A DNA stretch of 64,000 nt, taken from contig NC_081141.1 of assembly GCF_958295425.1 (NCBI RefSeq), positions 19,619,680 to 19,683,679 of the forward strand. The letters run 5' to 3'. Each line of letters opens with the position of its first letter. Positions within the stretch are counted from its first letter, which is position 1. Source of the DNA: Solea solea (taxonomy: Eukaryota; Chordata; Actinopteri; Pleuronectiformes; Soleidae). Positions 1-59,984 of the stretch are shown here, one piece after another. A program made the position numbers and the translations under genes. The notes beneath the pieces are model-generated. The model was not told the origin of the DNA. It made no database searches and worked only from the letters and a program-made list of their open reading frames with translations.

Positions 1-723
1 TTTCGTATGTCGTCCAAAAAGTGACAAAAAAGTCATACTTTCGTATGTCGTCCAAAATGTGACAAAAAAGTCATAGGTTAGTATGTCGTCCAAAATCACT
101 CAAAAAAGTCATAGGTTAGTATGTCGTCCAAAATGTTACAAAAAAGTCATAGGTTAGTATGTCGTCCAAAATGTGACAAAAAAGTCATAGGTTAGTATGT
201 CGTCCAAAATGTGACAAAAAAGTCATAGGTTAGTATGTCGTCCAAAATCACTCAAAAAAGTCATAGGTTAGTATGTCGTCCAAAATCACTCAAAAAAGTC
301 ATAGGTTAGTATGTCGTCCAAAATCACTCAAAAAGTCATAGGTTAAGATGTCGTCCAAAATGTGACAAAAAAGTCATACTTTTGTATGTCGTCCAAAATG
401 TGACAAAAAAGTCATAGGTTAGTATGTCGTCCAAAATCACTCAAAAAAGTCATAGGTTAGTATGTCGTCCAAAATGTGACAAAAAAGCCATAGGTTAGTA
501 TGTCGTCCAAAATGTGACAAAAAAGTCATACTTTCGTATGTCGTCCAAAATGTGACAAAAAAGTCATAGGTTAGTATGTCGTCCAAAATCACTCAAAAAG
601 TCATAGGTTAAGATGTCGTCCAAAATGTGACAAAAAAGTCATAGGTTAGTATGTCGTCCAAAATCACTCAAAAAGTCATAGGTTAAGATGTCGTCCAAAA
701 TGTGACAAAAAAGTCATAGGTTA

Positions 724-755
724 GTATGTCGTCCAAAATCACTCAAAAAAGTCAC
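724..755. repeat. Shortened 32-bp monomer
   Basis: The linker between GTCA and the next GTATG is nearly lost, giving GTCACGTATG at 751-760. It is the only such junction I noticed. A small deletion removing the TA plus linker explains it. Confidence 0.8.
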
Positions 756-1238
756 GTATGTCGTCCAAAATGTGACAAAAAAGTCATAGGTTAGTATGTC
801 GTCCAAAATCACTCAAAAAAGTCATAGGTTAGTATGTCGTCCAAACTCACTCAAAAAGTCATAGGTTAAGATGTCGTCCAAAATGTGACAAAAAAGTCAT
901 ACTTTCGTATGTCGTCCAAAATGTGACAAAAAAGTCATAGGTTAGTATGTCGTCCAAAATCACTCAAAAAAGTCATAGGTTAGTATGTCGTCCAAAATGT
1001 GACAAAAAAGTCATAGGTTAGTATGTCGTCCAAAATGTGACAAAAAAGTCATAGGTTAGTATGTCGTCCAAAATCACTCAAAAAGTCATAGGTTAAGATG
1101 TCGTCCAAAATGTGACAAAAAAGTCATACTTTCGTATGTCGTCCAAAAACACTCAAAAAAGTCATAGGTTAGTATGTCGTCCAAAATGTGACAAAAAAGT
1201 CATAGGTTAGTATGTCGTCCAAAATGTGACAAAAAAGT

Positions 1239-1252
1239 CATACTATAGTATG
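1239..1252. repeat. Perfect 14-bp palindromic linker CATACTATAGTATG (first of many)
   Basis: CATACTATAGTATG equals its own reverse complement. It arises where the linker is CTATA, and the next monomer then usually reads GTCGTCCAGAA instead of GTCGTCCAAAA, so the two changes travel together. Later examples are near 1549, 2456, 2949, 3937, 4390, 26174, 31325, 41537 and 49742. No binding protein can be named from sequence alone. Confidence 0.9.
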
Positions 1253-2214
1253 TCGTCCAGAATCACTCAAAAAAGTCATAGGTTAGTATGTCGTCCAAAA
1301 TGTGACAAAAAGTCATAGGTTAGTATGTCGTCCAAAATGTGACAAAAAAGTCATACTTTCGTATGTCATCCAAAATTTGACAAAAAAGTCATACTTTAGT
1401 ATTGTGTCCAAAATCTGAGAAAAAAAAGTCATACTTTCGTATGTCGTCCAAAATTTGACAAAAAAGTCATACGTTAGTATTGCGTCCAAAATCTGAGAAA
1501 AAAAAATCATACTTTCGTATGTCGTCCAAAATGTGACAAAAAAGTCATACTATAGTATGTCGTCCAGAATCACTCAAAAAAGTCATAGGTTAGTTTGTCG
1601 TCCAAAATGTGACAAAAAAGTCATAGGTTAGTATGTCGTCCAAAATGTGACAAAAAAGTCATAGGTTAGTATGTCGTCCAAAATGTGACAAAAAAGTCAT
1701 AGGTTGGTATGTCGTCCAAAATGTGACAAAAAAGTCAAACTTTCGTATGTCGTCCAAAATGTGACAAAAAAGTCATAGGTTAGTATGTCGTCCAAAATCA
1801 CTCAAAAAGTCATAGGTTAAGATGTCGTCCAAAATGTGACAAAAAAGTCATACTTTCCTATGTCGTCCAAAATGTGATAAAAAAGTCATAGGTTAGTATG
1901 TCGTCCAAAATCACACAAAAAAGTCATAGGTTAGTATGTCGTCCAAAATGTGACAAAAAAGTCATAGGTAAGTATGTCGTCCAAAATCACTCAAAAAGTC
2001 ATAGGTTAAGATGTCGTCCAAAATGTGACAAAAAAGTCATACTTTCGTATGTCGTCCAAAATGTGACAAAAAAGTCAAAGGTTAGTATGTCGTCCAAAAT
2101 CACTCAAAAAAGTCATAGGTTAGTATGTCGTCCAAAATGTGACAAAAAAGCCATAGGTTAGTATGTCGTCCAAAATCACTCAAAAAGTCATAGGTTAAGA
2201 TGTCGTCCAAAATG

Positions 2215-3882
2215 TGACAAAAAAGTCATACTTTCGTATGTCGTCCAAAATGTGACAAAAAAGTCATAGGTTAGTATGTCGTCCAAAATCACTCAAAAAG
2301 TCATAGGTTAAGATGTCGTCCAAAATGTGACAAAAAAGTCATAGGTTAGTATGTCGTCCAAAATCACTCAAAAAGTCATAGGTTAAGATGTCGTCCAAAA
2401 TGTGACAAAAAAGTCATACTTTCGTATGTCGTCCAAAAACACTCAAAAAAGTCATACTATAGTATGTCGTCCAAAATCACTCAAAAAAGTCATAGGTTAG
2501 TTTGTCGTCCAAAATGTGACAAAAAAGTCATAGGTTAGTATGTCGTCCAAAATGTGACCAAAAAGTCATACTTTCGTATGTCATCCAAAATTTGAAAAAA
2601 AGTCAAACTTTAGTATTGTGTCCAAAATCTGAGAAAAAAAAGTCATACTTTCGTATGTCGTCCAAAATGTGACAAAAAAGTCATAGGTTAGTATGTCGTC
2701 CAAAATGTGACAAAAAAGTCATACTTTCGTATGTCGTCCAAAATGTGACAAAAAAGTCATATATTCGTATGTCGTCCAAAATGTGACAAAAAAGTCATAC
2801 TTTCGTATGTCGTCCAAAATGTGACAAAAAAGTCATAGGTTAGTATGTCGTCCAAAATTTGACATAAAAGTCATACTTTAGTATGTCGTCCAAAATCACT
2901 CAAAAAAGTCATAGGTTAGTATGTCGTCCAAAATGTGACAAAAAAGTCATACTATAGTATGTCGTCCAGAATCACTCAAAAAAGTCATAGGTTAGTATGT
3001 CGTCCAAAATGTGACAAAAAAGCCATAGGTTAGTATGTCGTCCAAAATCACTCAAAAAGTCATAGGTAAAGATGTCGTCCAAAATGTGACAAAAAAGTCA
3101 TACTTTCGTATGTCGTCCAAAATGTAACAAAAAAGTCATAGGTTAGTATGTCGTCCAAAATCACTCAAAAAAGTCATAGGTTAGTATGTCGTCCAAAATG
3201 TGACAAAAAAGCCATAGGTTAGTATGTCGTCCAAAATGTGACAAAAAAGTCATACTTTCGTATGTCGTCCAAAATGTGACAAAAAAGTCATAGGTTAGTA
3301 TGTCGTCCAAAATCACTCAAAAAGTCATAGGTTAAGATGTCGTCCAAAATGTGACAAAAAAGTCATAGGTTAGTATGTCGTCCAAAATCACTCAAAAAGT
3401 CATAGGTTAAGATGTCGTCCAAAATGTGACAAAAAAGTCATACTTTCGTATGTCGTCCAAAAACACTCAAAAAAGTCATACTATAGTATGTCGTCCAAAA
3501 TCACTCAAAAAAGTCATAGGTTAGTTTGTCGTCCAAAATGTGACAAAAAAGTCATAGGTTAGTATGTCGTCCAAAATGTGACCAAAAAGTCATACTTTCG
3601 TATGTCATCCAAAATTTGAAAAAAAGTCAAACTTTAGTATTGTGTCCAAAATCTGAGAAAAAAAAGTCATACTTTCGTATGTCGTCCAAAATGTGACAAA
3701 AAAGTCATAGGTTAGTATGTCGTCCAAAATGTGACAAAAAAGTCATACTTTCGTATGTCGTCCAAAATGTGACAAAAAAGTCATATATTCGTATGTCGTC
3801 CAAAATGTGACAAAAAAGTCATACTTTCGTATGTCGTCCAAAATGTGACAAAAAAGTCATAGGTTAGTATGTCGTCCAAAAT
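2215..3882. repeat. Higher-order repeat, two copies 1024 bp apart
   Basis: Diagnostic variants recur at an exact 1024-bp offset: the CATACTAT junction at 2453 and 3477, the GACCAAAAAG monomer at 2556 and 3580, and the CATATATTCG linker at 2761 and 3785. The matching spans are roughly 2215-2858 and 3239-3882. 1024 bp is about 27 monomers, so this is a tandem duplication of a block rather than of single monomers. Confidence 0.85.
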
Positions 3883-8222: not shown

Positions 8223-9009
8223 AAAGTCATAGGTTAGTATGTCATCCAAAATCACTCAAAAAAGTCATAGGTTAGTATGTCGTCCAAAATGTGACAAAAA
8301 AGTCATAGGTTAGTATGTCGTCCAAAATGTGACAAAAAAGTCATAGGTTAGTATGTCGTCCAAAATGTGACAAAAAAGTCATAGGTTAGTATGTCGTCCA
8401 AAATCACTCAAAAAGTCATAGGTTAAGATGTCGTCCAAAATGTGACAAAAAAGTCATACTTTTGTATGTCGTCCAAAATGTGACAAAAAAGTCATAGGTT
8501 AGTATGTCGTCCAAAATCACTCAAAAAAGTCATAGGTTAGTATGTCGTCCAAAATGTGACAAAAAAGCCATAGGTTAGTATGTCGTCCAAAATGTGACAA
8601 AAAAGTCATACTTTCGTATGTCGTTCAAAATGTGACAAAAAAGTCATAGGTTAGTATGTCGTCCAAAATCACTCAAAAAGTCATAGGTTAAGATGTCGTC
8701 CAAAATGTGACAAAAAAGTCATAGGTTAGTATGTCGTCCAAAATCACTCAAAAAGTCATAGGTTAAGATGTCGTCCAAAATGTGACAAAAAAGTCATAGG
8801 TTAGTATGTCGTCCAAAATCACTCAAAAAAGTCATAGGTTAGTATGTCGTCCAAAATGTGACAAAAAAGTCATAGGTTAGTATGTCGTCCAAAATCACTC
8901 AAAAAGTCATAGGTTAGTATGTCGTCCAAAATCACTCAAAAAAGTCATAGGTTAGTATGTCGTCCAAAATCACTCAAAAAGTCATAGGTTAAGATGTCGT
9001 CCAAAATGT
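8223..9009. repeat. Array stretch with TGTGAC and TCACTC monomers
   Basis: Ordinary 37/38-bp monomers, resembling 300-960 in order (linkers GGTTA, TTTTG, a GCCATAGG variant). One core reads GTCGTTC near 8622. No unrelated sequence is present. Confidence 0.8.
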
Positions 9010-12000
9010 GACAAAAAAGTCATACTTTCGTATGTCGTCCAAAATGTGACAAAAAAGTCATAGGTTAGTATGTCGTCCAAAATCACTCAAAAAAGTCATA
9101 GGTTAGTATGTCGTCCAAAATGTGACAAAAAAGTCATAGGTTAGTATGTCGTCCAAAATGTGACCAAAAAGTCATACTTTCGTATGTCATCCAAAATTTG
9201 AAAAAAAGTCAAACTTTAGTATTGTGTCCAAAATCTGAGAAAAAAAAGTCATACTTTCGTATGTCGTCCAAAATGTGACAAAAAAGTCATAGGTTAGTAT
9301 GTCGTCCAAAATGTGACAAAAAAGTCATACTTTCGTATGTCGTCCAAAATGTGACAAAAAAGTCATATATTCGTATGTCGTCCAAAATGTGACAAAAAAG
9401 TCATACTTTCGTATTTCGTCCAAAATGTGACAAAAAAGTCATAGGTTAGTATGTCGTCCAAAATCACTCAAAAAAGTCATAGGTTAGTATGTCGTCCAAA
9501 ATGTGACAAAAAAGTCATAGGTTAGTATGTCGTCCAAAATCACTCAAAAAAGTCATAGGTTAGTATGTCGTCCAAAATGTGACAAAAAAGTCATACTATA
9601 GTATGTCGTCCAGAAACACTCAAAAAAGTCATAGGTTAGTATGTCGTCCAAAATGTGACAAAAAAGTCATAGGTTAGTATGTCGTCCAAAATGTGACAAA
9701 AAAGTCATACTTTCGTATGTCATCCAAAATTTGACAAAAAAGTCATACTTTAGTATTGTGTCCAAAATCTGAGAAAAAAAAGTCATACTTTCGTTTGTCG
9801 TCCAAAATGTGACAAAAAAGTCATACTTTAGTATGTCGTCCAAAATGTGACAAAAAAGTCATAGGTTAGTATGTCGTCCAAAATCACTCAAAAAGTCATA
9901 GGTTAAGATGTCGTCCAAAATGTGACAAAAAAGTCATACTTTCGTATGTCGTCCAAAATGTGACAAAAAAGTCATAGGTTAGTATGTCGTCCAAAATCAC
10001 TCAAAAAAGTCATAGGTTAGTATGTCGTCCAAAATGTGACAAAAAAGTCATAGGTTAGTATGTCGTCCAAAATGTGACAAAAAAGTCATAGGTTAGTATG
10101 TCGTCCAAAATGTGACAAAAAAGTCATAGGTTAGTATGTCGTCCAAAATCACTCAAAAAGTCATAGGTTAAGATGTCGTCCAAAATGTGACAAAAAAGTC
10201 ATACTTTTGTATGTCGTCCAAAATGTGACAAAAAAGTCATTGGTTAGTATGTCGTCCAAAATCACTCAAAAAAGTCATAGGTTAGTATGTCGTCCAAAAT
10301 GTGACAAAAAAGCCATAGGTTAGTATGTCGTCCAAAATGTGACAAAAAAGTCATACTTTCGTATGTCGTCCAAAATGTGACAAAAAAGTCATAGGTTAGT
10401 ATGTCGTCCAAAATCACTCAAAAAGTCATAGGTTAAGATGTCGTCCAAAATGTGACAAAAAAGTCATAGGTTAGTATGTCGTCCAAAAAGTCATAGGTTA
10501 AGATGTCGTCCAAAATGTGACAAAAAAGTCATAGGTTAGTATGTCGTCCAAAATCACTCAAAAAAGTCATAGGTTAGTATGTCGTCCAAAATGTGACAAA
10601 AAAGTCATAGGTTAGTATGTCGTCCAAAATCACTCAAAAAAGTCATAGGTTAGTATGTCGTCCAAAATCACTCAAAAAGTCATAGGTTAGTATGTCGTCC
10701 AAAATCACTCAAAAAAGTCATAGGTTAGTATGTCGTCCAAAATCACTCAAAAAGTCATAGGTTAAGATGTCGTCCAAAATGTGACAAAAAAGTCATACTT
10801 TCGTATGTCGTCCAAAATGTGACAAAAAAGTCATAGGTTAGTATGTCGTCCAAAATGTGACCAAAAAGTCATACTTTCGTATGTCATCCAAAATTTGAAA
10901 AAAAGTCAAACTTTAGTATTGTGTCCAAAATCTGAGAAAAAAAAGTCATACTTTCGTATGTCGTCCAAAATGTGACAAAAAAGTCATAGGTTAGTATGTC
11001 GTCCAAAATGTGACAAAAAAGTCATACTTTCGTATGTCGTCCAAAATGTGACAAAAAAGTCATATATTCGTATGTCGTCCAAAATGTGACAAAAAAGTCA
11101 TACTTTCGTATGTCGTCCAAAATGTGACAAAAAAGTCATAGGTTAGTATGTCGTCCAAAATCACTCAAAAAAGTCATAGGTTAGTATGTCGTCCAAAATG
11201 TGACAAAAAAGTCATAGGTTAGTATGTCGTCCAAAATGTGACCAAAAAGTCATACTTTCGTATGTCATCCAAAATTTGAAAAAAAGTCAAACTTTAGTAT
11301 TGTGTCCAAAATCTGAGAAAAAAAAGTCATACTTTCGTATGTCGTCCAAAATGTGACAAAAAAGTCATAGGTTAGTATGTCGTCCAAAATGTGACAAAAA
11401 AGTCATACTTTCGTATGTCGTCCAAAATGTGACAAAAAAGTCATATATTCGTATGTCGTCCAAAATGTGACAAAAAAGTCATACTTTCGTATTTCGTCCA
11501 AAATGTGACAAAAAAGTCATAGGTTAGTATGTCGTCCAAAATCACTCAAAAAAGTCATAGGTTAGTATGTCGTCCAAAATGTGACAAAAAAGTCATAGGT
11601 TAGTATGTCGTCCAAAATCACTCAAAAAAGTCATAGGTTAGTATGTCGTCCAAAATGTGACAAAAAAGTCATACTATAGTATGTCGTCCAGAAACACTCA
11701 AAAAAGTCATAGGTTAGTATGTCGTCCAAAATGTGACAAAAAAGTCATAGGTTAGTATGTCGTCCAAAATGTGACAAAAAAGTCATACTTTCGTATGTCA
11801 TCCAAAATTTGACAAAAAAGTCATACTTTAGTATTGTGTCCAAAATCTGAGAAAAAAAAGTCATACTTTCGTTTGTCGTCCAAAATGTGACAAAAAAGTC
11901 ATACTTTAGTATGTCGTCCAAAATGTGACAAAAAAGTCATAGGTTAGTATGTCGTCCAAAATCACTCAAAAAGTCATAGGTTAAGATGTCGTCCAAAATG

Positions 12001-13287
12001 TGACAAAAAAGTCATACTTTCGTATGTCGTCCAAAATGTGACAAAAAAGTCATAGGTTAGTATGTCGTCCAAAATCACTCAAAAAAGTCATAGGTTAGTA
12101 TGTCGTCCAAAATGTGACAAAAAAGTCATAGGTTAGTATGTCGTCCAAAATGTGACAAAAAAGTCATAGGTTAGTATGTCGTCCAAAATGTGACAAAAAA
12201 GTCATAGGTTAGTATGTCGTCCAAAATCACTCAAATGGTCATAGGTTAAGATGTCGTCCAAAATGTGACAAAAAAGTCATACTTTTGTATGTCGTCCAAA
12301 ATGTGACAAAAAAGTCATTGGTTAGTATGTCGTCCAAAATCACTCAAAAAAGTCATAGGTTAGTATGTCGTCCAAAATGTGACAAAAAAGCCATAGGTTA
12401 GTATGTCGTCCAAAATGTGACAAAAAAGTCATACTTTCGTATGTCGTCCAAAATGTGACAAAAAAGTCATAGGTTAGTATGTCGTCCAAAATCACTCAAA
12501 AAGTCATAGGTTAAGATGTCGTCCAAAATGTGACAAAAAAGTCATAGGTTAGTATGTCGTCCAAAAAGTCATAGGTTAAGATGTCGTCCAAAATGTGACA
12601 AAAAAGTCATAGGTTAGTATGTCGTCCAAAATCACTCAAAAAAGTCATAGGTTAGTATGTCGTCCAAAATGTGACAAAAAAGTCATAGGTTAGTATGTCG
12701 TCCAAAATCACTCAAAAAAGTCATAGGTTAGTATGTCGTCCAAAATCACTCAAAAAGTCATAGGTTAGTATGTCGTCCAAAATCACTCAAAAAAGTCATA
12801 GGTTAGTATGTCGTCCAAAATCACTCAAAAAGTCATAGGTTAAGATGTCGTCCAAAATGTGACAAAAAAGTCATACTTTCGTATGTCGTCCAAAATGTGA
12901 CAAAAAAGTCATAGGTTAGTATGTCGTCCAAAATGTGACCAAAAAGTCATACTTTCGTATGTCATCCAAAATTTGAAAAAAAGTCAAACTTTAGTATTGT
13001 GTCCAAAATCTGAGAAAAAAAAGTCATACTTTCGTATGTCGTCCAAAATGTGACAAAAAAGTCATAGGTTAGTATGTCGTCCAAAATGTGACAAAAAAGT
13101 CATACTTTCGTATGTCGTCCAAAATGTGACAAAAAAGTCATATATTCGTATGTCGTCCAAAATGTGACAAAAAAGTCATACTTTCGTATGTCGTCCAAAA
13201 TGTGACAAAAAAGTCATAGGTTAGTATGTCGTCCAAAATCACTCAAAAAAGTCATAGGTTAGTATGTCGTCCAAAATGTGACAAAAA
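9010..13287. repeat. Tandem duplication with 2078-bp period
   Basis: Four rare markers keep an exact 2078-bp offset: GTATTTCGTC at 9411 and 11489, GTCATTGG at 10241 and 12319, the 27-bp deleted monomer at 10474 and 12552, and the GACCAAAAAG monomers at 9162/11240 and 10859/12937. The copies differ by few changes, one being TCAAATGGTC at 12231-12240 where the other copy has an A5 tract. The low divergence points to a recent duplication. Confidence 0.9.
10474..10500. repeat. Deleted 27-bp monomer (copy at 12552-12578)
   Basis: GTCGTCC runs straight into AAAAAGTCATAGG, so the hexamer and one A-tract are missing. A slip between the two A-tracts of one monomer explains it. The same scar occurs 2078 bp downstream as part of the block duplication. 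A third example at 53283-53309 has a different linker and looks independent. Confidence 0.85.
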
Positions 13288-13540
13288 AGTCATACTATAG
13301 TATGTCGTCCAGAAACACTCAAAAAAGTCATAGGTTAGTATGTCGTCCAAAATGTGACAAAAAAGTCATAGGTTAGTATGTCGTCCAAAATGTGACAAAA
13401 AAGTCATACTTTCGTATGTCATCCAAAATTTGACAAAAAAGTCATACTTTAGTATTGTGTCCAAAATCTGAGAAAAAAAAGTCATACTTTAGTATTGTGT
13501 CCAAAATCTGAGAAAAAAAAGTCATACTTTCGTTTGTCGT
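13288..13540. repeat. Array stretch with doubled TCTGAG-A8 monomers
   Basis: Contains the palindromic linker followed by CCAGAAACACTC, then two 40-bp TCTGAG-A8 monomers in succession (about 13450-13530), each preceded by the GTATTGTGTCC core. Elsewhere this 40-bp monomer usually appears singly after a TCATCC/TTTGAC monomer, so a one-monomer duplication is likely. Confidence 0.75.
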
Positions 13541-15110
13541 CCAAAATCACTCAGAAAAGTCATAGGTTAGTATGTCGTCCAAAATTTGACATAAAAGTCA
13601 TACTTTAGTATGTCGTCCAAAATCACTGAAAAAAGTCATACTTTAGTATGTCGTCCAAAATCACTCAAAAAAGTCATAGGTTAGTATGTCGTCCAAAATG
13701 TGACAAAAAAGTCATACTATAGTATGTCGTCCAAAATGTTACAAAAAAGTCATAGGTTAGTATGTCGTCCAAAATGTGACAAAAAAGTCATACTTTCGTA
13801 TGTCGTCCAAAATGTGACAAAAAAGTCATAGGTTAGTATGTCGTCCAAAATCACTCAAAAAGTCATAGGTTAAGATGTCGTTCAAAATGTGACAAAAAAG
13901 TCATACTTTCGTATGTCGTCCAAAATGTGACAAAAAAGTCATACTTTCGTATGTCGTCCAAAATGTGACAAAAAAGTCATACTTTCGTATGTCGTCCAAA
14001 ATGTGACAAAAAAGTCATACTTTAGTATGTCGTCCAAAATTTGACATAAAAGTTATACTTTAGTATGTCGTCCAAAATTTGACAAAAAAGTCATAGGTTA
14101 GTATGTCGTCCAAAATGTGACAAAAAAGTCATAGGTTAGTATGTCGTCCAAAATGTTACAAAAAAGTCATAGGTTAGTATGTCGTCCAGAATGTGACAAA
14201 AAAGTCATAGGTTAGTATGTCGTCCAAAATGTGACAAAAAAGTCATACTTTCGTATGTCGTCCAAAATGTGACAAAAAAGTCATAGGTTAGTACGTCGTC
14301 CAAAATCACTCAAAAAGTCATAGGTTAAGATGTCGTCCAAAATGTGACAAAAAAGTCATACTTTCGTATGTCGTCCAAAATGTGACAAAAAAGTCATAGG
14401 TTAGTATGTTGTCCAAAATCACTCAAAAAAGTCATAGGTTAGTATATCGTCCAAAATGTGACAAAAAAGTCATAGGTTAGTATGTCGTCCAAAATCACTC
14501 AAAAAGTCATAGGTTAAGATGTCGTCCAAAATGTGACAAAAAAGTCATACTTTCGTATGTCGTCCAAAATGAGACAAAAAAGTCATAGGTTAGTATGTCG
14601 TCCAAAATCACTCAAAAAAGTCATAGGTTAGTATGTCGTCCAAAATGTGACAAAAACGTCATACTTTCGTATGTCGTCCAAAATGTGACAAAAAAGTCAT
14701 AGGTTAGTATGTCGTCCAAAATTTGACATGAAAGTCATAGGTTAGTTTGTCGTCCAAAATCACTCAAAAAAGTCATAGGTTAGTATGTCGTCCAAAATGT
14801 GACAAAAAGGTCATACTTTCGTATGTCGTCCAAAATGTGACAAAAAAGTCATAGGTTAGTATGTCGTCCAAAATCACTCAAAAAAGTCATAGGTTAGTAT
14901 GTCGTCCAAAATCACTCAAAAAAGTCATATTCTTAGTATGTCATCCAAAATCACTCAAAAAAGTGATTTTGGACGACAAAAAAGTCATAGGTTAGTATGT
15001 CGTCCAAAATGTGACAAAAAAGTCATAGGTTAGTATGTCGTCCAAAATGTGACAAAAAAGTCATACTTTCGTATGTCGTCCAAAATGTGACAAAAAAAAG
15101 TCATACTTTG
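13541..15110. repeat. Module shared with 42168-43563 (about 28.46 kb away)
   Basis: The order of rare variants matches the block at 42168-43563: CACTCAG, then TTTGACATAAAAG, then CACTGAAAA, then GTCGTTC, GAGAC, TTTGACATGAAAG, AAAAGGTCATAC and finally TTTGGTATG. AAAAGGTC at about 14809 pairs with 43283 (offset 28474) and TTGGTATG at 15108 pairs with 43561 (offset 28453). The 21-bp change in offset is accounted for by the inverted piece at 14940-14977 plus a one-base linker change. This is a long-distance copy within the array. Confidence 0.82.
14926..14980. repeat. Local inversion: foldback of two monomer cores
   Basis: Arm 14940-14955 (GTCATCCAAAATCACT) is followed by CAAAAA and then arm 14962-14977 (AGTGATTTTGGACGAC), which is the reverse complement with one mismatch in 16. 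It is the only place where I saw GGACGAC on the plus strand in the array. The matching locus near 43385-43450 lacks it, and the difference in length is 22 bp. The neighbouring linker CATATTCTTAGTATG is also unusual. This looks like a template-switch or foldback event inside one monomer. Confidence 0.9.
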
Positions 15111-18300: not shown

Positions 18301-21300
18301 TTTGTATGTCGTCCAAAATGTGACAAAAAAGTCATACTTTTGTATGTCGTCCAAAATGTGACAAAAAAGTCATAGGTTAGTATGTCGTCCAAAATGTGAC
18401 AAAAAAGTCATACTTTCGTATGTTATCCAAAATTTGACAAAAAAGTCATACGTTAGTATTGCGTCCAAAATCTGAGAAAAAAAAGTCATATTTTCGTATG
18501 TCGTCCAAAATGTGACAAAAAAGTCATACTTTCGTATGTCGTCCAAAATCTGAGAAAAAAAAGTCATACTTTCGTATGTCGTCCAAAATGTGACAAAAAA
18601 GTCATACTTTCGTATGTCGTCCAAAATGTGACAAAAAAGTCATACTTTCGTATGTCGTCCAAAATGTGACAAAAAAGTCATACTTTCGTATGTCGTCCAA
18701 AATGTGACAAAAAAAATTATACTTTCGTATGTCGTCCAAAATGTGACAAAAAAGTCATACTATCGTATGTCGTCCAAAATGTGACAAAAAAGTCATAGGT
18801 TAGTATGTCGTCCAAAATCACTCAAAAAAGTCATAGGTTAGTATGTCGTCCAAAATGTGACAAAAGTCATACTTTCGTATGTCATCCAAAATTTGACAAA
18901 AAAGTCATACTTTAGTATTGCGTCCAAAATCTGAGAAAAAAAAGTCATACTTTCGTATGTCGTCCAAAATGTGACAAAAAAGTCATAGGTTAGTATGTCG
19001 TCCAAAATGTGACAAAAAAGTCATAGGTTAGTATGTCGTCCAAAATGTGACAAAAAAGTCATACTTTTGTATGTCGTCCAAAATGTGACAAAAAAGTCAT
19101 ACTTTCGTATGTCGTCCAAAATGTGACAAAAAAGTCATAGGTTAGTATGTCGTCCAAAATGTGACAAAAAAGTCATACTTTCGTATGTTATCCAAAATTT
19201 GACAAAAAAGTCATACGTTAGTATTGCGTCCAAAATCTGAGAAAAAAAAGTCATACTTTCGTATGTCGTCCAAAATGTGACAAAAAAGTCATACTTTCGT
19301 ATGTCGTCCAAAATGTGACAAAAAAGTCATACTTTCGTATGTCGTCCAAAATGTGACAAAAAAGTCATAGGTTAGTATGTCGTCCAAAATCACTCAAAAA
19401 GTCATAGGTTAAGATGTCGTCCAAAATGTGACAAAAAAGTCATACTTTCGTATGTCGTCCAAAATGTGACAAAAAAGTCATAGGTTAGTATGTCGTCCAA
19501 AATCACTCAAAAAAGTCATAGGTTAGTATGTCGTCCAAAATGTGACAAAAAAGCCATAGGTTAGTATGTCGTCCAAAATGTGACAAAAGTCATACTTTCG
19601 TATGTCATCCAAAATTTGACAAAAAAGTCATACTTTAGTATTGCGTCCAAAATCTGAGAAAAAAAAGTCATACTTTCGTATGTCGTCCAAAATGTGACAA
19701 AAAAGTCATAGGTTAGTATGTCGTCCAAAATGTGACAAAAAAGTCATACTTTTGTATGTCGTCCAAAATGTGACAAAAAAGTCATACTTTTGTATGTCGT
19801 CCAAAATGTGACAAAAAAGTCATAGGTTAGTATGTCGTCCAAAATGTGACAAAAAAGTCATACTTTCGTATGTTATCCAAAATTTGACAAAAAAGTCATA
19901 CGTTAGTATTGCGTCCAAAATCTGAGAAAAAAAAGTCATATTTTCGTATGTCGTCCAAAATGTGACAAAAAAGTCATACTTTCGTATGTCGTCCAAAATC
20001 TGAGAAAAAAAAGTCATACTTTCGTATGTCGTCCAAAATGTGACAAAAAAGTCATACTTTCGTATGTCTTCCAAAATCTGAGAAAAAAAAGTCATACTTT
20101 CGTATGTCGTCCAAAATGTGACAAAAAAGTCATACTTTCGTATGTCGTCCAAAATGTGACAAAAAAGTCATACTTTCGTATGTCGTCCAAAATGTGACAA
20201 AAAAGTCATACTTTCGTATGTCGTCCAAAATGTGACAAAAAAAATTATACTTTCGTATGTCGTCCAAAATGTGACAAAAAAGTCATACTTTCGTATGTCG
20301 TCCAAATTGTGACAAAAAAGTCATAGGTTAGTATGTCGTCCAAAATCACTCAAAAAGTCATAGGTTAAGATGTCGTCCAAAATGTGACAAAAAAGTCATA
20401 CTTTCGTATGTCGTCCAAAATGTGACAAAAAAGTCATAGGTTAGTATGTCGTCCAAAATCACTCAAAAAAGTCATAGGTTAGTATGTCGTCCAAAATGTG
20501 ACAAAAAAGCCATAGGTTAGTATGTCGTCCAAAATGTGACAAAAGTCATACTTTCGTATGTCATCCAAAATTTGACAAAAAAGTCATACTTTAGTATTGC
20601 GTCCAAAATCTGAGAAAAAAAAGTCATACTTTCGTATGTCGTCCAAAATGTGACAAAAAAGTCATAGGTTAGTATGTCGTCCAAAATGTGACAAAAAAGT
20701 CATACTTTTGTATGTCGTCCAAAATGTGACAAAAAAGTCATACTTTTGTATGTCGTCCAAAATGTGACAAAAAAGTCATAGGTTAGTATGTCGTCCAAAA
20801 TGTGACAAAAAAGTCATACTTTCGTATGTTATCCAAAATTTGACAAAAAAGTCATACGTTAGTATTGCGTCCAAAATCTGAGAAAAAAAAGTCATATTTT
20901 CGTATGTCGTCCAAAATGTGACAAAAAAGTCATACTTTCGTATGTCGTCCAAAATGTGACAAAAAAGTCATACTTTCGTATGTCGTCCAAAATGTGACAA
21001 AAAAGTCATACTTTCGTATGTCGTCCAAAATGTGACAAAAAAAATTATACTTTCGTATGTCGTCCAAAATGTGACAAAAAAGTCATACTTTCGTATGTCG
21101 TCCAAAATGTGACAAAAAAGTCATAGGTTAGTATGTCGTCCAAAATCACTCAAAAAAGTCATAGGTTAGTATGTCGTCCAAAATGTGACAAAAGTCATAC
21201 TTTCGTATGTCATCCAAAATTTGACAAAAAAGTCATACTTTAGTATTGCGTCCAAAATCTGAGAAAAAAAAGTCATACTTTCGTATGTCGTCCAAAATGT

Positions 21301-24300
21301 GACAAAAAAGTCATAGGTTAGTATGTCGTCCAAAATGTGACAAAAAAGTCATAGGTTAGTATGTCGTCCAAAATGTGACAAAAAAGTCATACTTTTGTAT
21401 GTCGTCCAAAATGTGACAAAAAAGTCATACTTTTGTATGTCGTCCAAAATGTGACAAAAAAGTCATACTTTCGTATGTCGTCCAAAATGTGACAAAAAAG
21501 TCATAGGTTAGTATGTCGTCCAAAATGTGACAAAAAAGTCATACTTTCGTATGTTATCCAAAATTTGACAAAAAAGTCATACGTTAGTATTGCGTCCAAA
21601 ATCTGAGAAAAAAAAGTCATACTTTCGTATGTCGTCCAAAATGTGACAAAAAAGTCATACTTTCGTATGTCATCCAAAATCTGAGAAAAAAAAGTCATAC
21701 TTTCGTATGTCGTCCAAAATGTGACAAAAAAGTCATACTTTCGTATGTCGTCCAAAATGTGACAAAAAAGTCATACTTTCGTATGTCGTCCAAAATGTGA
21801 CAAAAAAGTCATACTTTCGTATGTCGTCCAAAATGTGACAAAAAAAATTATACTTTCGTATGTCGTCCAAAATGTGACAAAAAAGTCATACTTTCGTATG
21901 TCGTCCAAAATGTGACAAAAAAGTCATAGGTTAGTATGTCGTCCAAAATCACTCAAAAAGTCATAGGTTAAGATGTCGTCCAAAATGTGACAAAAAAGTC
22001 ATACTTTCGTATGTCGTCCAAAATGTGACAAAAAAGTCATAGGTTAGTATGTCGTCCAAAATCACTCAAAAAAGTCATAGGTTAGTATGTCGTCCAAAAT
22101 GTGACAAAAAAGCCATAGGTTAGTATGTCGTCCAAAATGTGACAAAAGTCATACTTTCGTATGTCATCCAAAATTTGACAAAAAAGTCATACTTTAGTAT
22201 TGCGTCCAAAATCTGAGAAAAAAAAGTCATACTTTCGTATGTCGTCCAAAATGTGACAAAAAAGTCATAGGTTAGTATGTCGTCCAAAATGTGACAAAAA
22301 AGTCATACTTTTGTATGTCGTCCAAAATGTGACAAAAAAGTCATACTTTCGTATGTCGTCCAAAATGTGACAAAAAAGTCATAGGTTAGTATGTCGTCCA
22401 AAATGTGACAAAAAAGTCATACTTTCGTATGTTATCCAAAATTTGACAAAAAAGTCATACGTTAGTATTGCGTCCAAAATCTGAGAAAAAAAAGTCATAC
22501 TTTCGTATGTCGTCCAAAATGTGACAAAAAAGTCATACTTTCGTATGTCGTCCAAAATCTGAGAAAAAGAAGTCATACTTTCGTATGTCGTCCAAAATGT
22601 GACAAAAAAGTCATACTTTCGTATGTCGTCCAAAATGTGACAAAAAAGTCATACTTTCGTATGTCGTCCAAAATGTGACAAAAAAGTCATACTTTCGTAT
22701 GTCGTCCAAAATGTGACAAAAAAAATTATACTTTCGTATGTCGTCCAAAATGTGACAAAAAAGTCATACTTTCGTATGTCGTCCAAAATGTGACAAAAAA
22801 GTCATAGGTTAGTATGTCGTCCAAAATCACTCAAAAAAGTCATAGGTTAGTATGTCGTCCAAAATGTGACAAAAAAGCCATAGGTTAGTATGTCGTCCAA
22901 AATGTGACAAAAGTCATACTTTCGTATGTCATCCAAAATTTGACAAAAAAGTCATACTTTAGTATTGCGTCCAAAATCTGAGAAAAAAAAGTCATACTTT
23001 CGTATGTCGTCCAAAATGTGACAAAAAAGTCATAGGTTAGTATGTCGTCCAAAATGTGACAAAAAAGTCATACTTTCGTATGTTATCCAAAATTTGACAA
23101 AAAAGTCATACGTTAGTATTGCGTCCAAAATCTGAGAAAAAAAAGTCATACTTTCGTATGTCGTCCAAAATGTGACAATAAAGTCATACTTCCGTATGTC
23201 GTCCAAAATCTGAGAAAAAAAAGTCATACTTTCGTATGTCGTCCAAAATGTGACAAAAAAAATTATACTTTCGTATGTCGTCCAAAATGTGACAAAAAAG
23301 TCATACTTTCGTATGTCGTCCAAAATGTGACAAAAAAGTCATAGGTTAGTATGTCGTCCAAAATCACTCAAAAAAGTCATAGGTTAGTATGTCGTCCAAA
23401 ATGTGACAAAAAAGCCATAGGTTAGTATGTCGTCCAAAATGTGACAAAAGTCATACTTTCGTATGTCATCCAAAATTTGACAAAAAAGTCATACTTTAGT
23501 ATTGCGTCCATAATCTGAGAAAAAAAAGTCATACTTTCGTATGTCGTCCAAAATGTGACAAAAAAGTCATAGGTTAGTATGTCGTCCAAAATGTGACAAA
23601 AAAGTCATACTTTCGTATGTTATCCAAAATTTGACAAAAAAGTCATACGTTAGTATTGCGTCCAAAATCTGAGAAAAAAAAGTCATACTTTCGTATGTCG
23701 TCCAAAATGTGACAATAAAGTCATACTTCCGTATGTCGTCCAAAATCTGAGAAAAAAAAGTCATACTTTCGTATGTCGTCCAAAATGTGACAAAAAAGTC
23801 ATAGGTTAGTATGTCGTCCAAAATGTGACAAAAAAGTCATACTTTTGTATGTCGTCCAAAATGTGACAAAAAAGTCATACTTTCGTATGTCGTCCAAAAT
23901 GTGACAAAAAAGTCATAGGTTAGTATGTCGTCCAAAATGTGACAAAAAAGTCATACTTTCGTATGCTTATCCAAAATTTGACAAAAAAGTCATACGTTAG
24001 TATTGCGTCCAAAATCTGAGAAAAAAAAGTCATACTTTCGTATGTCGTCCAAAATGTGACAAAAAAGTCATTCTTTCGTATGTCGTCCAAAATCTGAGAA
24101 AAAAAAGTCATACTTTCGTATGTCGTCCAAAATGTGACAAAAAAGTCATACTTTCGTATGTCGTCCAAAATGTGACAAAAAAGTCATACTTTCGTATGTC
24201 GTCCAAAATGTGACAAAAAAAATTATACTTTCGTATGTCGTCCAAAATGTGACAAAAAAGTCATACTTTCGTATGTCGTCCAAAATGTGACAAAAAAGTC

Positions 24301-52199: not shown

Positions 52200-55100
52200 C
52201 ACTCAAAAAGTCATAGATTAAGATGTCGTCCAAAATGTGACCAAAAAGTCATACTTTCGTATGTCGTCCAAAATGTGACAAAAAAGTCATAGGTTAGTAT
52301 GTCGTCCAAAATTTGACATAAAAGTCATACTTTAGTATGTCGTCCAAAATCACTCAAAAAAGTCATACTTTAGTATGTCGTCCAAAATAACTCAAAAAAG
52401 TCATAGGTTAGTATGCGGTCCAAAATGTGACAAAAAAGTCATACTTTAGTATGTCGTCCAAAATCACTCAAAAAAGTCATAGGTTAGTATGTCGTCCAAA
52501 ATGTGACAAAAAAGTCATAGGGTAGTATGTCGTCCAAAATGTGACAAAAAAGTCATACTATAGTATGTCTTCCAGAATCACTCAAAAAAGTCATAGGTTA
52601 GTATGTCGTCCAAAATGTGACAAAAAAGTCATACTTTCGTATGTCGTCCAAAATGTGACAAAAAAGTCATAGGTTAGTATGTCGTCCAAAATCACTCAAA
52701 AAGTCATAGGTTAAGATGTCGTCCAAAATGTGACAAAAAAGTCATACTTTCGTATGTCGTCCAAAATGTGACAAAAAAGTCATACTTTCGTATGTCGTCC
52801 AAAATGTGACAAAAAAGTCATAGGTTAGTATGTCGTCCAAAATGTGACAAAAAAGTCATAGGTTAGTATGACGTCCAAAATCTGACAAAAAAGTCATAGG
52901 TTAGTATGTCGTCCAAAATCACTCAAAAAGTCATAGGTTAAGATGTCGTCCAAAATGTGACAAAAAAGTCATACTTTCGTATGTCGTCCAAAATGTGACA
53001 AAAAAGTCATACTTTCGTATGTCGTCCAAAATGTGACAAAAAAGTCATAGGTTAGTATGTCGTCCAAAATGTGACAAAAAAGTCATAGGTTAGTATGTCG
53101 TCCAAAATGTGACAAAAAAGTCATAGGTTAGTATGTCGTCCAAAATCACTCAAAAAAGTCATAGGTTAGTATGTCGTCCAAAATTTGACATAAAAGTCAT
53201 ACTTTAGTATGTCGTCCAAAATGTGACAAAAAAGTCATAGGTTAGTATGTCGTCCAAAATGTGACAAAAAAGTCATAGGTTAGTATGTCGTCCAAAAAGT
53301 CATACTTTCGTATGTCGTCCAAAATGTGACAAAAAAGTCATAGGTTAGTATGTCGTCCAAAATTTGACATAAAAGTCATACTTTAGTATGTCGTCCAAAA
53401 TCACTCAAAAAAGTCATACTTTAGTATGTCGTCCAAAATAACTCAAAAAAGTCATAGGTTAGTATGCGGTCCAAAATGTGACAAAAAAGTCATACTTTAG
53501 TATGTCGTCCAAAATCACTCAAAAAAGTCATAGGTTAGTATGTCGTCCAAAATGTGACAAAAAAGTCATAGGGTAGTATGTCGTCCAAAATGTGACAAAA
53601 AAGTCATACTATAGTATGTCTTCCAGAATCACTCAAAAAAGTCATAGGTTAGTATGTCGTCCAAAATGTGACAAAAAAGTCATACTTTCGTATGTCGTCC
53701 AAAATGTGACAAAAAAGTCATAGGTTAGTATGTCGTCCAAAATCACTCAAAAAGTCATAGGTTAAGATGTCGTCCAAAATGTGACAAAAAAGTCATACTT
53801 TCGTATGTCGTCCAAAATGTGACAAAAAAGTCATACTTTCGTATGTCGTCCAAAATGTGACAAAAAAGTCATAGGTTAGTATGTCGTCCAAAATGTGACA
53901 AAAAAGTCATAGGTTAGTATGACGTCCAAAATCTGACAAAAAAGTCATAGGTTAGTATGTCGTCCAAAATCACTCAAAAAGTCATAGGTTAAGATGTCGT
54001 CCAAAATGTGACAAAAAAGTCATACTTTCGTATGTCGTCCAAAATGTGACAAAAAAGTCATACTTTCGTATGTCGTCCAAAATGTGACAAAAAAGTCATA
54101 GGTTAGTATGTCGTCCAAAATGTGACAAAAAAGTCATAGGTTAGTATGTCGTCCAAAATGTGACAAAAAAGTCATAGGTTAGTATGTCGTCCAAAATCAC
54201 TCAAAAAAGTCATAGGTTAGTATGTCGTCCAAAATTTGACATAAAAGTCATACTTTAGTATGTCGTCCAAAATGTGACAAAAAAGTCATAGGTTAGTATG
54301 TCGTCCAAAATGTGACAAAAAAGTCATAGGTTAGTATGTCGTCCAAAATGTGACAAAAAAGTCATAGGTTAGTATGTCGTCCAAAATCACTCAAAAAAGT
54401 CATAGGTTAGTATGTCGTCCAAAATTTGACATAAAAGTCATACTTTAGTATGTCGTCCAAAATGTGACAAAAAAGTCATACTTTCGTATGTCGTCCAAAA
54501 TCACTCAAAAAGTCATAGGTTAAGATGTCGTCCAAAATGTGACAAAAAAGTCATACTTTCGTATGTCGTCCAAAATGTGACAAAAAAGTCATAGGTTAGT
54601 ATGTCGTCCAAAATGTGACAAAAAAGTCATAGGTTAGTATGTCGTCCAAAATGTGACAAAAAAGTCATAGGTTAGTATGTCGTCCAAAATCACTCAAAAA
54701 AGTCATAGGTTAGTATGTCGTCCAAAATTTGACATAAAAGTCATACTTTCGTATGTCGTCCAAAATGTGACAAAAAAGTCATACTTTCGTATGTCGTCCA
54801 AAATGTGACAAAAAAGTCATACTTTCGTATGTCGTCCAAAATGTGACAAAAAAGTCATACTTTCGTATGTCGTCCAAAATGTGACAAAAAAGTCATAGGT
54901 TAGTATGTCGTCCAAAATGTGACAAAAAAGTCATAGGTTAGTATGACGTCCAAAATCTGACAAAAAAGTCATAGGTTAGTATGTCGTCCAAAATCACTCA
55001 AAAAGTCATAGGTTAAGATGTCGTCCAAAATGTGACAAAAAAGTCATACTTTCGTATGTCGTCCAAAATGTGACAAAAAAGTCATACTTTCGTATGTCGT

Positions 55101-58100
55101 CCAAAATGTGACAAAAAAGTCATAGGTTAGTATGTCGTCCAAAATGTGACAAAAAAGTCATAGGTTAGTATGTCGTCCAAAATGTGACAAAAAAGTCATA
55201 GGTTAGTATGTCGTCCAAAATCACTCAAAAAAGTCATAGGTTAGTATGTCGTCCAAAATTTGACATAAAAGTCATACTTTAGTATGTCGTCCAAAATGTG
55301 ACAAAAAAGTCATAGGTTAGTATGTCGTCCAAAATGTGACAAAAAAGTCATAGGTTAGTATGTCGTCCAAAATGTGACAAAAAAGTCATAGGTTAGTATG
55401 TCGTCCAAAATCACTCAAAAAAGTCATAGGTTAGTATGTCGTCCAAAATTTGACATAAAAGTCATACTTTAGTATGTCGTCCAAAATGTGACAAAAAAGT
55501 CATAGGTTAGTATGTCGTCCAAAATCACTCAAAAAAGTCATAGGTTAGTATGTCGTCCAAAATTTGACATAAAAGTCATACTTTAGTATGTCGTCCAAAA
55601 TGTGACAAAAAAGTCATACTTTCGTATGTCGTCCAAAATCACTCAAAAAGTCATAGGTTAAGATGTCGTCCAAAATGTGACAAAAAAGTCATACTTTCGT
55701 ATGTCGTCCAAAATGTGACAAAAAAGTCATAGGTTAGTATGTCGTCCAAAATGTGACAAAAAAGTCATAGGTTAGTATGTCGTCCAAAATGTGACAAAAA
55801 AGTCATAGGTTAGTATGTCGTCCAAAATCACTCAAAAAAGTCATAGGTTAGTATGTCGTCCAAAATTTGACATAAAAGTCATACTTTAGTATGTCGTCCA
55901 AAATGTGACAAAAAAGTCATAGGTTAGTATGTCGTCCAAAATCTGACAAAAAAGTCATAGGTTAGTATGTCGTCCAAAATGTGACAAAAAAGTCATAGGT
56001 TAGTATGTCGTCCAAAATGTGACAAAAAAGTCATAGGTTAGTATGTCGTCCAAAATGTGACAAAAAAGTCATAGGTTAGTATGTCGTCCAAAATCACTCA
56101 AAAAGTCATAGGTTAAGATGTCGTCCAAAATGTGACAAAAAAGTCATAGGTTAGTATGTCGTCCAAAATGTGACAAAAAAGTCATACTTTCGTATGTCGT
56201 CCAAAATGTGACAAAAAAGTCATAGGTTAGTATGTCGTCCAAAATGTGACAAAAAAGTCATAGGTTAGTATGACGTCCAAAATCTGACAAAAAAGTCATA
56301 GGTTAGTATGTCGTCCAAAATCACTCAAAAAGTCATAGGTTAAGATGTCGTCCAAAATGTGACAAAAAAGTCATACTTTCGTATGTCGTCCAAAATGTGA
56401 CAAAAAAGTCATACTTTCGTATGTCGTCCAAAATGTGACAAAAAAGTCATAGGTTAGTATGTCGTCCAAAATGTGACAAAAAAGTCATAGGTTAGTATGT
56501 CGTCCAAAATGTGACAAAAAAGTCATAGGTTAGTATGTCGTCCAAAATCACTCAAAAAAGTCATAGGTTAGTATGTCGTCCAAAATTTGACATAAAAGTC
56601 ATACTTTAGTATGTCGTCCAAAATGTGACAAAAAAGTCATAGGTTAGTATGTCGTCCAAAATGTGACAAAAAAGTCATAGGTTAGTATGTCGTCCAAAAT
56701 GTGACAAAAAAGTCATAGGTTAGTATGTCGTCCAAAATCACTCAAAAAAGTCATAGGTTAGTATGTCGTCCAAAATTTGACATAAAAGTCATACTTTAGT
56801 ATGTCGTCCAAAATGTGACAAAAAAGTCATACTTTCGTATGTCGTCCAAAATCACTCAAAAAGTCATAGGTTAAGATGTCGTCCAAAATGTGACAAAAAA
56901 GTCATACTTTCGTATGTCGTCCAAAATGTGACAAAAAAGTCATAGGTTAGTATGTCGTCCAAAATGTGACAAAAAAGTCATAGGTTAGTATGTCGTCCAA
57001 AATGTGACAAAAAAGTCATAGGTTAGTATGTCGTCCAAAATCACTCAAAAAAGTCATAGGTTAGTATGTCGTCCAAAATTTGACATAAAAGTCATACTTT
57101 AGTATGTCGTCCAAAATGTGACAAAAAAGTCATAGGTTAGTATGTCGTCCAAAATCTGACAAAAAAGTCATAGGTTAGTATGTCGTCCAAAATGTGACAA
57201 AAAAGTCATAGGTTAGTATGTCGTCCAAAATGTGACAAAAAAGTCATAGGTTAGTATGTCGTCCAAAATGTGACAAAAAAGTCATAGGTTAGTATGTCGT
57301 CCAAAATCACTCAAAAAAGTCATAGGTTAGTATGTCGTCCAAAATTTGACATAAAAGTCATACTTTAGTATGTCGTCCAAAATGTGACAAAAAAGTCATA
57401 GGTTAGTATGTCGTCCAAAATGTGACAAAAAAGTCATAGGTTAGTATGTCGTCCAAAATGTGACAAAAAAGTCATAGGTTAGTATGTCGTCCAAAATCAC
57501 TCAAAAAAGTCATAGGTTAGTATGTCGTCCAAAATTTGACATAAAAGTCATACTTTAGTATGTCGTCCAAAATGTGACAAAAAAGTCATACTTTCGTATG
57601 TCGTCCAAAATCACTCAAAAAGTCATAGGTTAAGATGTCGTCCAAAATGTGACAAAAAAGTCATACTTTCGTATGTCGTCCAAAATGTGACAAAAAAGTC
57701 ATAGGTTAGTATGTCGTCCAAAATGTGACAAAAAAGTCATAGGTTAGTATGTCGTCCAAAATGTGACAAAAAAGTCATAGGTTAGTATGTCGTCCAAAAT
57801 CACTCAAAAAAGTCATAGGTTAGTATGTCGTCCAAAATTTGACATAAAAGTCATACTTTAGTATGTCGTCCAAAATGTGACAAAAAAGTCATAGGTTAGT
57901 ATGTCGTCCAAAATCTGACAAAAAAGTCATAGGTTAGTATGTCGTCCAAAATGTGACAAAAAAGTCATAGGTTAGTATGTCGTCCAAAATGTGACAAAAA
58001 AGTCATAGGTTAGTATGTCGTCCAAAATGTGACAAAAAAGTCATAGGTTAGTATGTCGTCCAAAATCACTCAAAAAAGTCATAGGTTAGTATGTCGTCCA

Positions 58101-58920
58101 AAATTTGACATAAAAGTCATACTTTAGTATGTCGTCCAAAATGTGACAAAAAAGTCATACTTTCGTATGTCGTCCAAAATCACTCAAAAAGTCATAGGTT
58201 AAGATGTCGTCCAAAATGTGACAAAAAAGTCATACTTTCGTATGTCGTCCAAAATGTGACAAAAAAGTCATAGGTTAGTATGTCGTCCAAAATGTGACAA
58301 AAAAGTCATAGGTTAGTATGACGTCCAAAATCTGACAAAAAAGTCATAGGTTAGTATGTCGTCCAAAATCTGACAAAAAAGTCATAGGTTAGTATGTCGT
58401 CCAAAATGTGACAAAAAAGTCATAGGTTAGTATGTCGTCCAAAATGTGACAAAAAAGTCATAGGTTAGTATGTCGTCCAAAATGTGACAAAAAAGTCATA
58501 GGTTAGTATGTCGTCCAAAATCACTCAAAAAAGTCATAGGTTAGTATGTCGTCCAAAATTTGACATAAAAGTCATACTTTAGTATGTCGTCCAAAATGTG
58601 ACAAAAAAGTCATACTTTCGTATGTCGTCCAAAATCACTCAAAAAGTCATAGGTTAAGATGTCGTCCAAAATGTGACAAAAAAGTCATACTTTCGTATGT
58701 CGTCCAAAATGTGACAAAAAAGTCATAGGTTAGTATGTCGTCCAAAATGTGACAAAAAAGTCATAGGTTAGTATGTCGTCCAAAATGTGACAAAAAAGTC
58801 ATAGGTTAGTATGTCGTCCAAAATCACTCAAAAAAGTCATAGGTTAGTATGTCGTCCAAAATTTGACATAAAAGTCATACTTTAGTATGTCGTCCAAAAT
58901 GTGACAAAAAAGTCATACTT
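52200..58920. repeat. Homogeneous block with 190-bp pentamers and ~1.03-kb repeats
   Basis: Monomers here show very few private changes. A five-monomer unit (three TGTGAC, one TCACTC, one TTTGACATAAAAG) repeats at exactly 190 bp: ATAAAAG at 54241 and 54431, TGACATAAAAG at 55261 and 55451, 56588 and 56778, ATAAAAG at 57351 and 57541. At a larger scale GTATGCGGTC at 52411 and 53462 and TATGACGTCC at 52871 and 53922 are both 1051 bp apart; further TGACGTCC copies start near 54946, 56273 and 58321. A 27-bp deleted monomer is at 53283-53309. Low divergence suggests this is the most recently expanded part. Confidence 0.88.
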
Positions 58921-59680
58921 TCGTATGTCGTCCAAAATGTGCCAAAAAAGTCATACTTTCGTATGTCGTCCAAAATGTGACAAAAAAGTCATAGGTTAGT
59001 ATGTCGTCCAAAATCACTCAAAAAAGTCATAGGTTAGTATGTCGTCCAAAATGTGACAAAAAAGTCATAGGTTAGTATGTCGTCCAAAATCACTCAAAAA
59101 GTCATAGGTTAAGATCTCGTCCAAAATGTGACAAAAAAGTCATACTTTCGTATGTCGTCCACAATGTGACAAAAAAGTCATAGGTTAGTATGTCGTCCAA
59201 AATCACTCAAAAAAGTCATAGGTTAGTATGTCGTCCAAAATGTGACAAAAACGTCATACTTTCGTATGTCGTCCAAAATTTGACATAAAAGTCATACTTT
59301 AGTATGTCGTCCAAAATCACTCAAAAAAGTCATAGGTTAGTATGTCGTCCAAAATGTGACAAAAAAGTCATAGGTTAGTATGTCGTCCAAAATCACTCAA
59401 AAAAATCATAGGTTAGTTTGTCGTCCAAAATAAGACAAAAAAGTCATAGGTTAGTATGTCGTCCAAAATGTGACAAAAAAGTCATAGGTTAGTATGTCGT
59501 CCAAAATGTGACAAAAAAGTCATAGGTTAGTAAGTCGTCCAAAATGTGACAAAAAAGTCATAGGTTAGTATGTCGTCCAAAATCACTCAAAAAAATCATA
59601 GGTTAGTTTGTCGTCCAAAATAAGACAAAAAAGTCATACTTTAGTACGTTGTCCAAAATGTGACAAAAAAGTCAAACTTT
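58921..59680. repeat. Diverged right edge of the array
   Basis: The last ~20 monomers gather private changes: GTGCC near 58940, AAGATCTCG near 59112, CCACAATG near 59159, AAAAACGTC, AATAAGAC, AAAAAAATCATAGG and GTACGTTG. A 190-bp unit (AAAAATCATAGG at 59401 and 59591) is repeated. The array stops at GTCAAACTTT (59671-59680). Decay at the edge is expected when unequal exchange homogenises only the interior. Confidence 0.85.
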
Positions 59681-59686
59681 TATTTT

Positions 59687-59868: not shown

Positions 59869-59984
59869 AAACTCACACCTTGCAGGCTACAGAGACCCTA
59901 GTATATTGCAAGTTTTTGAATGAAAATCAGAAAAGTCCTCCATTAGTGTGTAAGTGTGTGTTTGTGCATGAGTGCTTGTATTTA
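59869..59984. other. Short flank with no recognised content
   Basis: Non-coding sequence with a GT-rich stretch (59947-59975). A short plus-strand open frame (59841-60056) crosses it and the repeats on both sides; it has no recognisable domain and I do not regard it as a gene. Confidence 0.6.

What the first reader, a model, noticed from the sequence alone, without database searches (positions are those of the whole stretch)
1..59680. Very large, apparently unnamed 38-bp satellite array
At least 59.7 kb of one 38-bp monomer, about 1,570 copies, with one orientation throughout except one foldback. Most minisatellites are far shorter. I do not recognise the family. Such arrays can be centromeric, pericentromeric, sex-chromosome linked or interstitial. 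The sequence alone does not say which.
Basis: partly seen in the sequence, partly recalled or inferred. Interest (0 to 1): 0.75.

Follow-up and report, generated by a model that had tools for sequence, protein, structure and literature searches.

The report
Long 38-bp satellite repeat array
A real, long run of a 38-letter DNA repeat, probably from a fish, of an ordinary kind; its layout suggests it grows by copying blocks of many repeats at once rather than one repeat at a time.

Summary
The array is real. Tandem Repeats Finder gives one 38-bp array at 5-59674, 1570.8 copies, 86% matches. It is cut by the window's left edge and ends abruptly at right. The "foldback" is one 38-nt hairpin at 14940-14977. 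A wraparound alignment gives 1573 pieces of 166 distinct sequences, varying mainly in short boxes around a constant core. Neighbouring units are no more alike than random pairs (difference not significant), yet 67% of the array lies in 35 near-identical block pairs of 811-2325 bp (0 in five monomer shuffles). In a simple simulation this fits duplication of blocks of 15-60 or 60-120 units, not of 1, 1-5 or 5-15. Eight predicted proteins on contigs of unstated organisms carry a related repeat. No held paper contains the longer monomer strings, but Dfam and Repbase were not available, so "unnamed" is untested. Short-unit satellites, some centromeric, are known in fish. Verdict: new member of a known kind. 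Chromosomal position and function cannot be read from this window; the own-genome search did not complete.

The parts
1..59680 (+). 38-bp satellite array, head to tail; TRF limits 5-59674; open at the left window edge
   Evidence: TRF; wraparound partition of 1-59690 into 1573 pieces, 166 distinct
14940..14977 (.). Only inverted element found in the array: a 38-nt imperfect hairpin (16-nt arms, one mismatch, 6-nt loop), probably a local template switch (inference)
8961..13363 (+). Largest near-identical gap-free block pair: 2325 bp at 8961-11285 recurring at offset 2078, 98.5% identical, the two copies overlapping (tandem)
52220..59014 (+). Right-hand part with several overlapping block duplications (offsets 759, 1051, 1213, 1972, 2351, 3110, 4134)
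59681..64000 (.). Right flank: no 38-bp array, microsatellites (GT, CAG); no Pfam match reaching its curated cut-off in the 6 of 6 listed flank ORFs of 80 aa or more

Best explanation
A non-coding tandem satellite array of a short-unit family. It most likely grew by repeated duplication of multi-unit blocks of roughly 15 or more monomers (0.6 kb upward; gap-free near-identical blocks seen are 0.8-2.3 kb), as unequal exchange or recombination-based repair would produce, and not by single-unit replication slippage. The block structure is shown; that blocks were duplicated in tandem is supported by simulation; the enzymatic route is inferred. It probably needs no sequence-specific function and is most likely packaged as heterochromatin (inference).
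For: One array, one orientation. Only 166 distinct sequences among 1573 pieces. Lag-1 identity 0.074 against 0.083 for random pairs, while mutual information between neighbours is 2.64 bits against 1.35 (sd 0.02) in 20 shuffles. 35 gap-free block pairs (every 800-bp window in them at least 98% identical; whole merged blocks 96.5-98.5%) cover 67% of the array, median offset 3140 bp, 0 in five monomer shuffles (one, four). 56% of 12-unit blocks have another copy with at least 10 of 12 identical units; 0 in 5 shuffles sampled at every fifth start. Simulation: single units give lag-1/random ratios of 2.3-6.1 with at most 0.01 blocks matched; blocks of 1-5 and 5-15 units never combine a ratio near 1 with the 0.59 matched that is observed (up to 3000 and 2000 events); 15-60 units with 40 events give ratio 0.99 (0.80-1.11) and 0.56 matched (0.50-0.63) in 10 runs, against 0.88 and 0.59 observed. 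Longest listed stop-free frame in the array is 115 codons, and 38 is not a multiple of 3.
Against: The simulation starts from a shuffled library and has no mutation, and it sets no upper limit: blocks of 60-120 units with 10 events fit too (ratio 1.05, 0.56 matched). Several near-identical blocks lie 21-35 kb apart (offsets 21191, 24920, 26935, 29595, 32773, 34788), which tandem duplication alone does not simply explain; later expansion between them or gene conversion is needed. The slight shortage of identical neighbours is not significant (91 of 1000 shuffles as low). Heterochromatin was not tested.
Confidence: 0.82

Rival explanations
1. As to position and role: the array is centromeric or pericentromeric and serves the kinetochore or flanking heterochromatin. 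(Compatible with the block-duplication mechanism.)
For: Short-unit minisatellites (77, 49 and 24 nt) map to centromeric regions in Nothobranchius furzeri (PMC2688266, passages); medaka centromeric repeat regions are 20-345 kb (PMC5705604, passages), so this size fits.
Against: No CENP-B-box-like match on either strand of the window (recalled pattern). No single regular higher-order repeat: the best local lag changes along the array. The visible right flank is not satellite DNA. None of these excludes it.
Confidence: 0.25
2. As to position and role: a large interstitial or subtelomeric minisatellite in a chromosome arm, without a role. (Also compatible with the block-duplication mechanism.)
For: Abrupt edge into non-satellite sequence with microsatellites. 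Several translated relatives have short or broken runs interrupted by other sequence, as dispersed minisatellites do.
Against: At least 59.7 kb is long for an interstitial minisatellite (general knowledge); only 4.3 kb of one flank can be seen.
Confidence: 0.45
3. Assembly artefact: collapsed, falsely joined or duplicated reads.
For: Long tandem arrays are hard to assemble (general knowledge); no reads were available.
Against: No exact run of identical monomers shared by two places exceeds 34 units. The CACTC variant lacking one A is followed by an AG start in 118 of 130 cases, with 121 AG starts in all, which random homopolymer error would not give.
Confidence: 0.05
4. A repetitive protein-coding gene.
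For: Some frames stay open for 80-115 codons, and proteins have been predicted over related repeats; one of them, P0006, bears a precomputed Pfam label PF12579.
Against: 38 is not a multiple of 3, so a frame runs through all three phases, and each of the three common unit types tested contains stops; length variants of 37 and 40 nt are frequent. In Pfam scans of one window translation and 7 of the 8 relatives (P0002 not scanned) no match reached its curated cut-off; the P0006 match scored 24.5 against 25.
Confidence: 0.01

Closest known systems
Nothobranchius furzeri 77-, 49- and 24-nt minisatellites (PMC2688266, passages)
   Same: Short units in tandem repeats of a fish
   Different: Those are G+C-rich and centromeric by FISH. 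This unit is 38 bp, about 33-34% G+C, position unknown. Sequences were not compared.
Medaka centromeric repeat regions (PMC5705604, passages)
   Same: Array length lies in their range (20-345 kb); built of related monomers in blocks
   Different: Here block lengths vary along the array with no fixed higher-order unit; kinetochore role untested. Sequences were not compared.
Short satellites of Astyanax paranae (PMC5635008, abstract and passages)
   Same: Unit length: median 59 bp, range 6-365 bp, 33 of 45 families below 100 bp
   Different: Array lengths and sequences were not compared.

Membership tests
Satellite DNA (general kind) | Long head-to-tail array of non-coding units | tested here: met
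Satellite DNA (general kind) | Clustered in heterochromatin | not testable with these tools
   needs FISH or chromatin data
Higher-order-repeat centromeric satellite | A regular multi-monomer unit repeated through the array | tested here: not met
   Best lag (1-59 units, windows of 100) varies by region between 2 and 55 units; none of the 60 best lags up to 6 kb lies beyond 1138 bp; duplicated blocks at many different offsets. A unit longer than the window would be missed.
Higher-order-repeat centromeric satellite | CENP-A occupancy | not testable with these tools
   needs ChIP
CENP-B-box satellites | CENP-B box core (TTCG-N4-A-N2-CGGG, recalled) | tested here: not met
   0 matches in the window, both strands
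The 38-bp repeat family seen in P0001-P0008 | 38-nt spacing of a similar core in translated relatives | tested here: met
   33 of 55 spacings are exactly 38 nt and 39 of 55 are 36-40 nt. Not uniform: P0003 has 0 of 3 and P0008 1 of 9. Patterns were written after seeing the sequences and the hits were found by similarity, so this is partly circular.
Previously named satellite | Match in a repeat library | not tested
   no Dfam or Repbase here; open-access text only

The most novel reading that the evidence does not exclude
A widely conserved short-unit satellite family whose constant core (TATGTCGTCCAAAA) is kept by a bound protein while the spacer boxes drift, making this array a candidate centromere or pericentromere of a new sequence class.
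Probability: 0.07. Interest if true: 0.55.

Novelty: new member of a known kind. Interest (0 to 1): 0.25.

Why it matters
It is an ordered, fairly accurate-looking array in which the scale of amplification can be read from the order of variants: blocks of some 15 or more monomers rather than single ones. That is a small but usable case for how satellites turn over. The core kept among relatives gives a specific motif to test for a binding protein. Otherwise it is ordinary.

Tried and rejected
Exact or degenerate monomer patterns in viral contigs and genome contigs: 0 matches; the outputs say that the window's own genome may be left out. blastn of window 20001-22000 (2 kb of the array) against phages and plasmids: none. 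Rfam at gathering threshold: 0. The search for related loci with the protein alignment in viral contigs: 104 pattern stretches, none confirmed. Forward-frame protein search: 0 of 1079 candidates. A megablast self-comparison did not report the internal repeats, so diagonals were scored directly.

Methylation, left open: CpG observed/expected is 1.16 in the array and 0.27 in the flank. Among 67 distinct rare units one substitution away from a common type, 10 changes fall at CpG (4.3 expected by base share, p 0.011), but only 2 of these are transitions, against 12 C/G transitions elsewhere (35 further rare pieces that were not one substitution from a common type of equal length, and pieces under 36 nt, were dropped). 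The lack of transitions would suit a hypomethylated array. But CpG-loss variants also occur on several backgrounds: TGTCATC in 11 types, TGTTGTC in 5, TGTTATC in 2, and the G of the CpG is A in 85 of 1572 aligned letters, as deamination would give. The high CpG ratio may also come from one founder unit. Inconclusive.

DNA hairpins in the unit: dimers of three unit types gave z -0.58, -2.06 and +1.01, no general tendency. A-tracts: the commonest centre spacings are 11 and 27 bp, and phase coherence in 150-bp windows is 0.14-0.25; no claim of curvature.

One search shows that 60-120 units fit as well and that the shortage of identical neighbours is not significant; the 98% holds for 800-bp windows, the merged blocks being 96.5-98.5%.

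Full report
Observation. TRF reports one 38-bp array from 5 to 59674, 1570.8 copies, 86% matches. The left end lies beyond the window; the right end is abrupt and passes into non-satellite DNA with microsatellites. Orientation is uniform. The reverse complement of GTCGTCC occurs once in the array, in a 38-nt hairpin at 14940-14977; the stretch around it folds far better than its shuffles (z -7.24). No inverted pair of 25 bp or more was listed. This fits a local template switch (inference) rather than an inverted domain.

Anatomy. A wraparound alignment split positions 1-59690 into 1573 pieces, a few of them partial; 166 sequences are distinct, 80 of them singletons. TCGTCCAAAA is exact in 1337 of 1573 pieces and AAAAAGTCATA in 1409 of 1573. 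Variation is concentrated in three boxes: the start (GT or AG), the middle (GTGAC, CACTC, TTGAC, CTGAG) and the end (GGTTA, CTTTC, CTTTA, CTATA). CACTC units with one A fewer number 130; 118 are followed by an AG start, and AG starts number 121 in all. This linkage argues against homopolymer error.

Turnover. Units one apart are identical in 7.4% of cases, random pairs in 8.3%; the shortage is not significant (91 of 1000 shuffles as low), but single-unit duplication would give an excess. The order is strongly non-random: mutual information at lag 1 is 2.64 bits against 1.35 (sd 0.02) in 20 shuffles. Maximal exact runs of at least 8 identical monomers number 108 pairs, the longest 34 units; one shuffle has none of that length. 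Scoring every diagonal gives 35 gap-free pairs of 811-2325 bp in which every 800-bp window is at least 98% identical (merged blocks 96.5-98.5%). They cover 67% of the array; the median offset is 3140 bp. Five monomer shuffles have none. Six pairs lie 21-35 kb apart. The best local lag drifts along the array, so there is no single higher-order repeat among lags up to 59 units, nor a strong longer one up to 6 kb.

Simulation. Starting from the shuffled units, without mutation, blocks were duplicated in tandem and equal lengths deleted. Observed: lag-1/random ratio 0.88 and 0.59 of sampled 12-unit blocks matched. Single units gave ratios of 2.3-6.1 and at most 0.01 matched (3 runs per setting). 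Blocks of 1-5 units reached 0.22 matched only with ratio 5.1, and blocks of 5-15 units 0.39 only with ratio 2.2 (10 runs per setting). Blocks of 15-60 units with 40 events gave 0.99 and 0.56; blocks of 60-120 units with 10 events gave 1.05 and 0.56 (10 runs each). So the blocks are large, with a lower limit near 15 units (0.6 kb) and no upper limit set here. The likely mode is unequal exchange or recombination-based repair; which enzymes act is inference.

Coding. The longest listed stop-free frame in the array is 115 codons (frames running off the window were not listed). The unit is not a multiple of three, the three common types tested carry stops and 37- and 40-nt length variants are frequent. 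Pfam scans of one window translation and 7 of 8 relatives gave no match at its curated cut-off. It is not a gene on this evidence.

Relatives. Searching a reverse-strand translation gave 3 proteins with E up to 10 among 686 candidates, best 1.5e-27. A forward frame gave none of 1079. An alignment of the three with the query gave 8 among 7994 scored candidates. Their contigs have seven different lengths; P0004 and P0008 show the same one. The organisms are not stated. Back-reading the frames, the core recurs at exactly 38 nt in 33 of 55 spacings, but in 0 of 3 in P0003 and 1 of 9 in P0008. The patterns were written after seeing the sequences and the hits were found by similarity, so the test is partly circular; P0005 (4 of 6) and P0006 (8 of 9) keep the step although their peptides imply an altered core. 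The family is therefore not private to this locus. Nothing was found in the viral, prokaryote, phage or plasmid collections at the sensitivity used.

What is known. Open-access full text holds none of six longer monomer strings; six shorter strings hit four papers on other subjects (listing only). Searches for 38-bp satellites, minisatellites, repeats or monomers gave 5 and 11 papers (listings only); none of the listed titles or abstract openings describes a fish satellite. Broader searches (listings, several of them capped) served for background and were not read through. Short units are normal in fish: median 59 bp in Astyanax paranae (PMC5635008, abstract and passages). In Nothobranchius furzeri 77-, 49- and 24-nt minisatellites map to centromeric regions (PMC2688266, passages). 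Medaka centromeric regions span 20-345 kb, mostly hypermethylated with hypomethylated parts (PMC5705604, passages). A survey of 282 species excluded units under 50 bp (PMC4053949, passages), so a unit like this would have been left out there. Dfam and Repbase were not available.

Limits. The genome search did not answer in 15 tries, so copy number, other loci and chromosomal position are unknown. The CpG evidence conflicts and is left open.

Verdict. A real feature of an ordinary kind: a long short-unit satellite array with a readable block-wise history. New member of a known kind; interest 0.25.

Noticed in passing
window 1-59680 and 59691-64000: CpG observed/expected is 1.16 in the array and 0.27 in the flank, but CpG-loss variants occur on several backgrounds; methylation state unresolved.
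   Followed up: partly
window 63728-63795: CAG microsatellite, 22.7 copies with interruptions; the two overlapping frames tested gave no Pfam match at its curated cut-off.
   Followed up: partly
window 6109 and 31029: A 27-monomer exact run recurs 24.9 kb away, longer-range than tandem block duplication alone would suggest.
   Followed up: partly
P0005 and P0006: Both relatives have the repeat run interrupted by a similar non-repeat stretch, as if another element sits inside related arrays.
   Followed up: no
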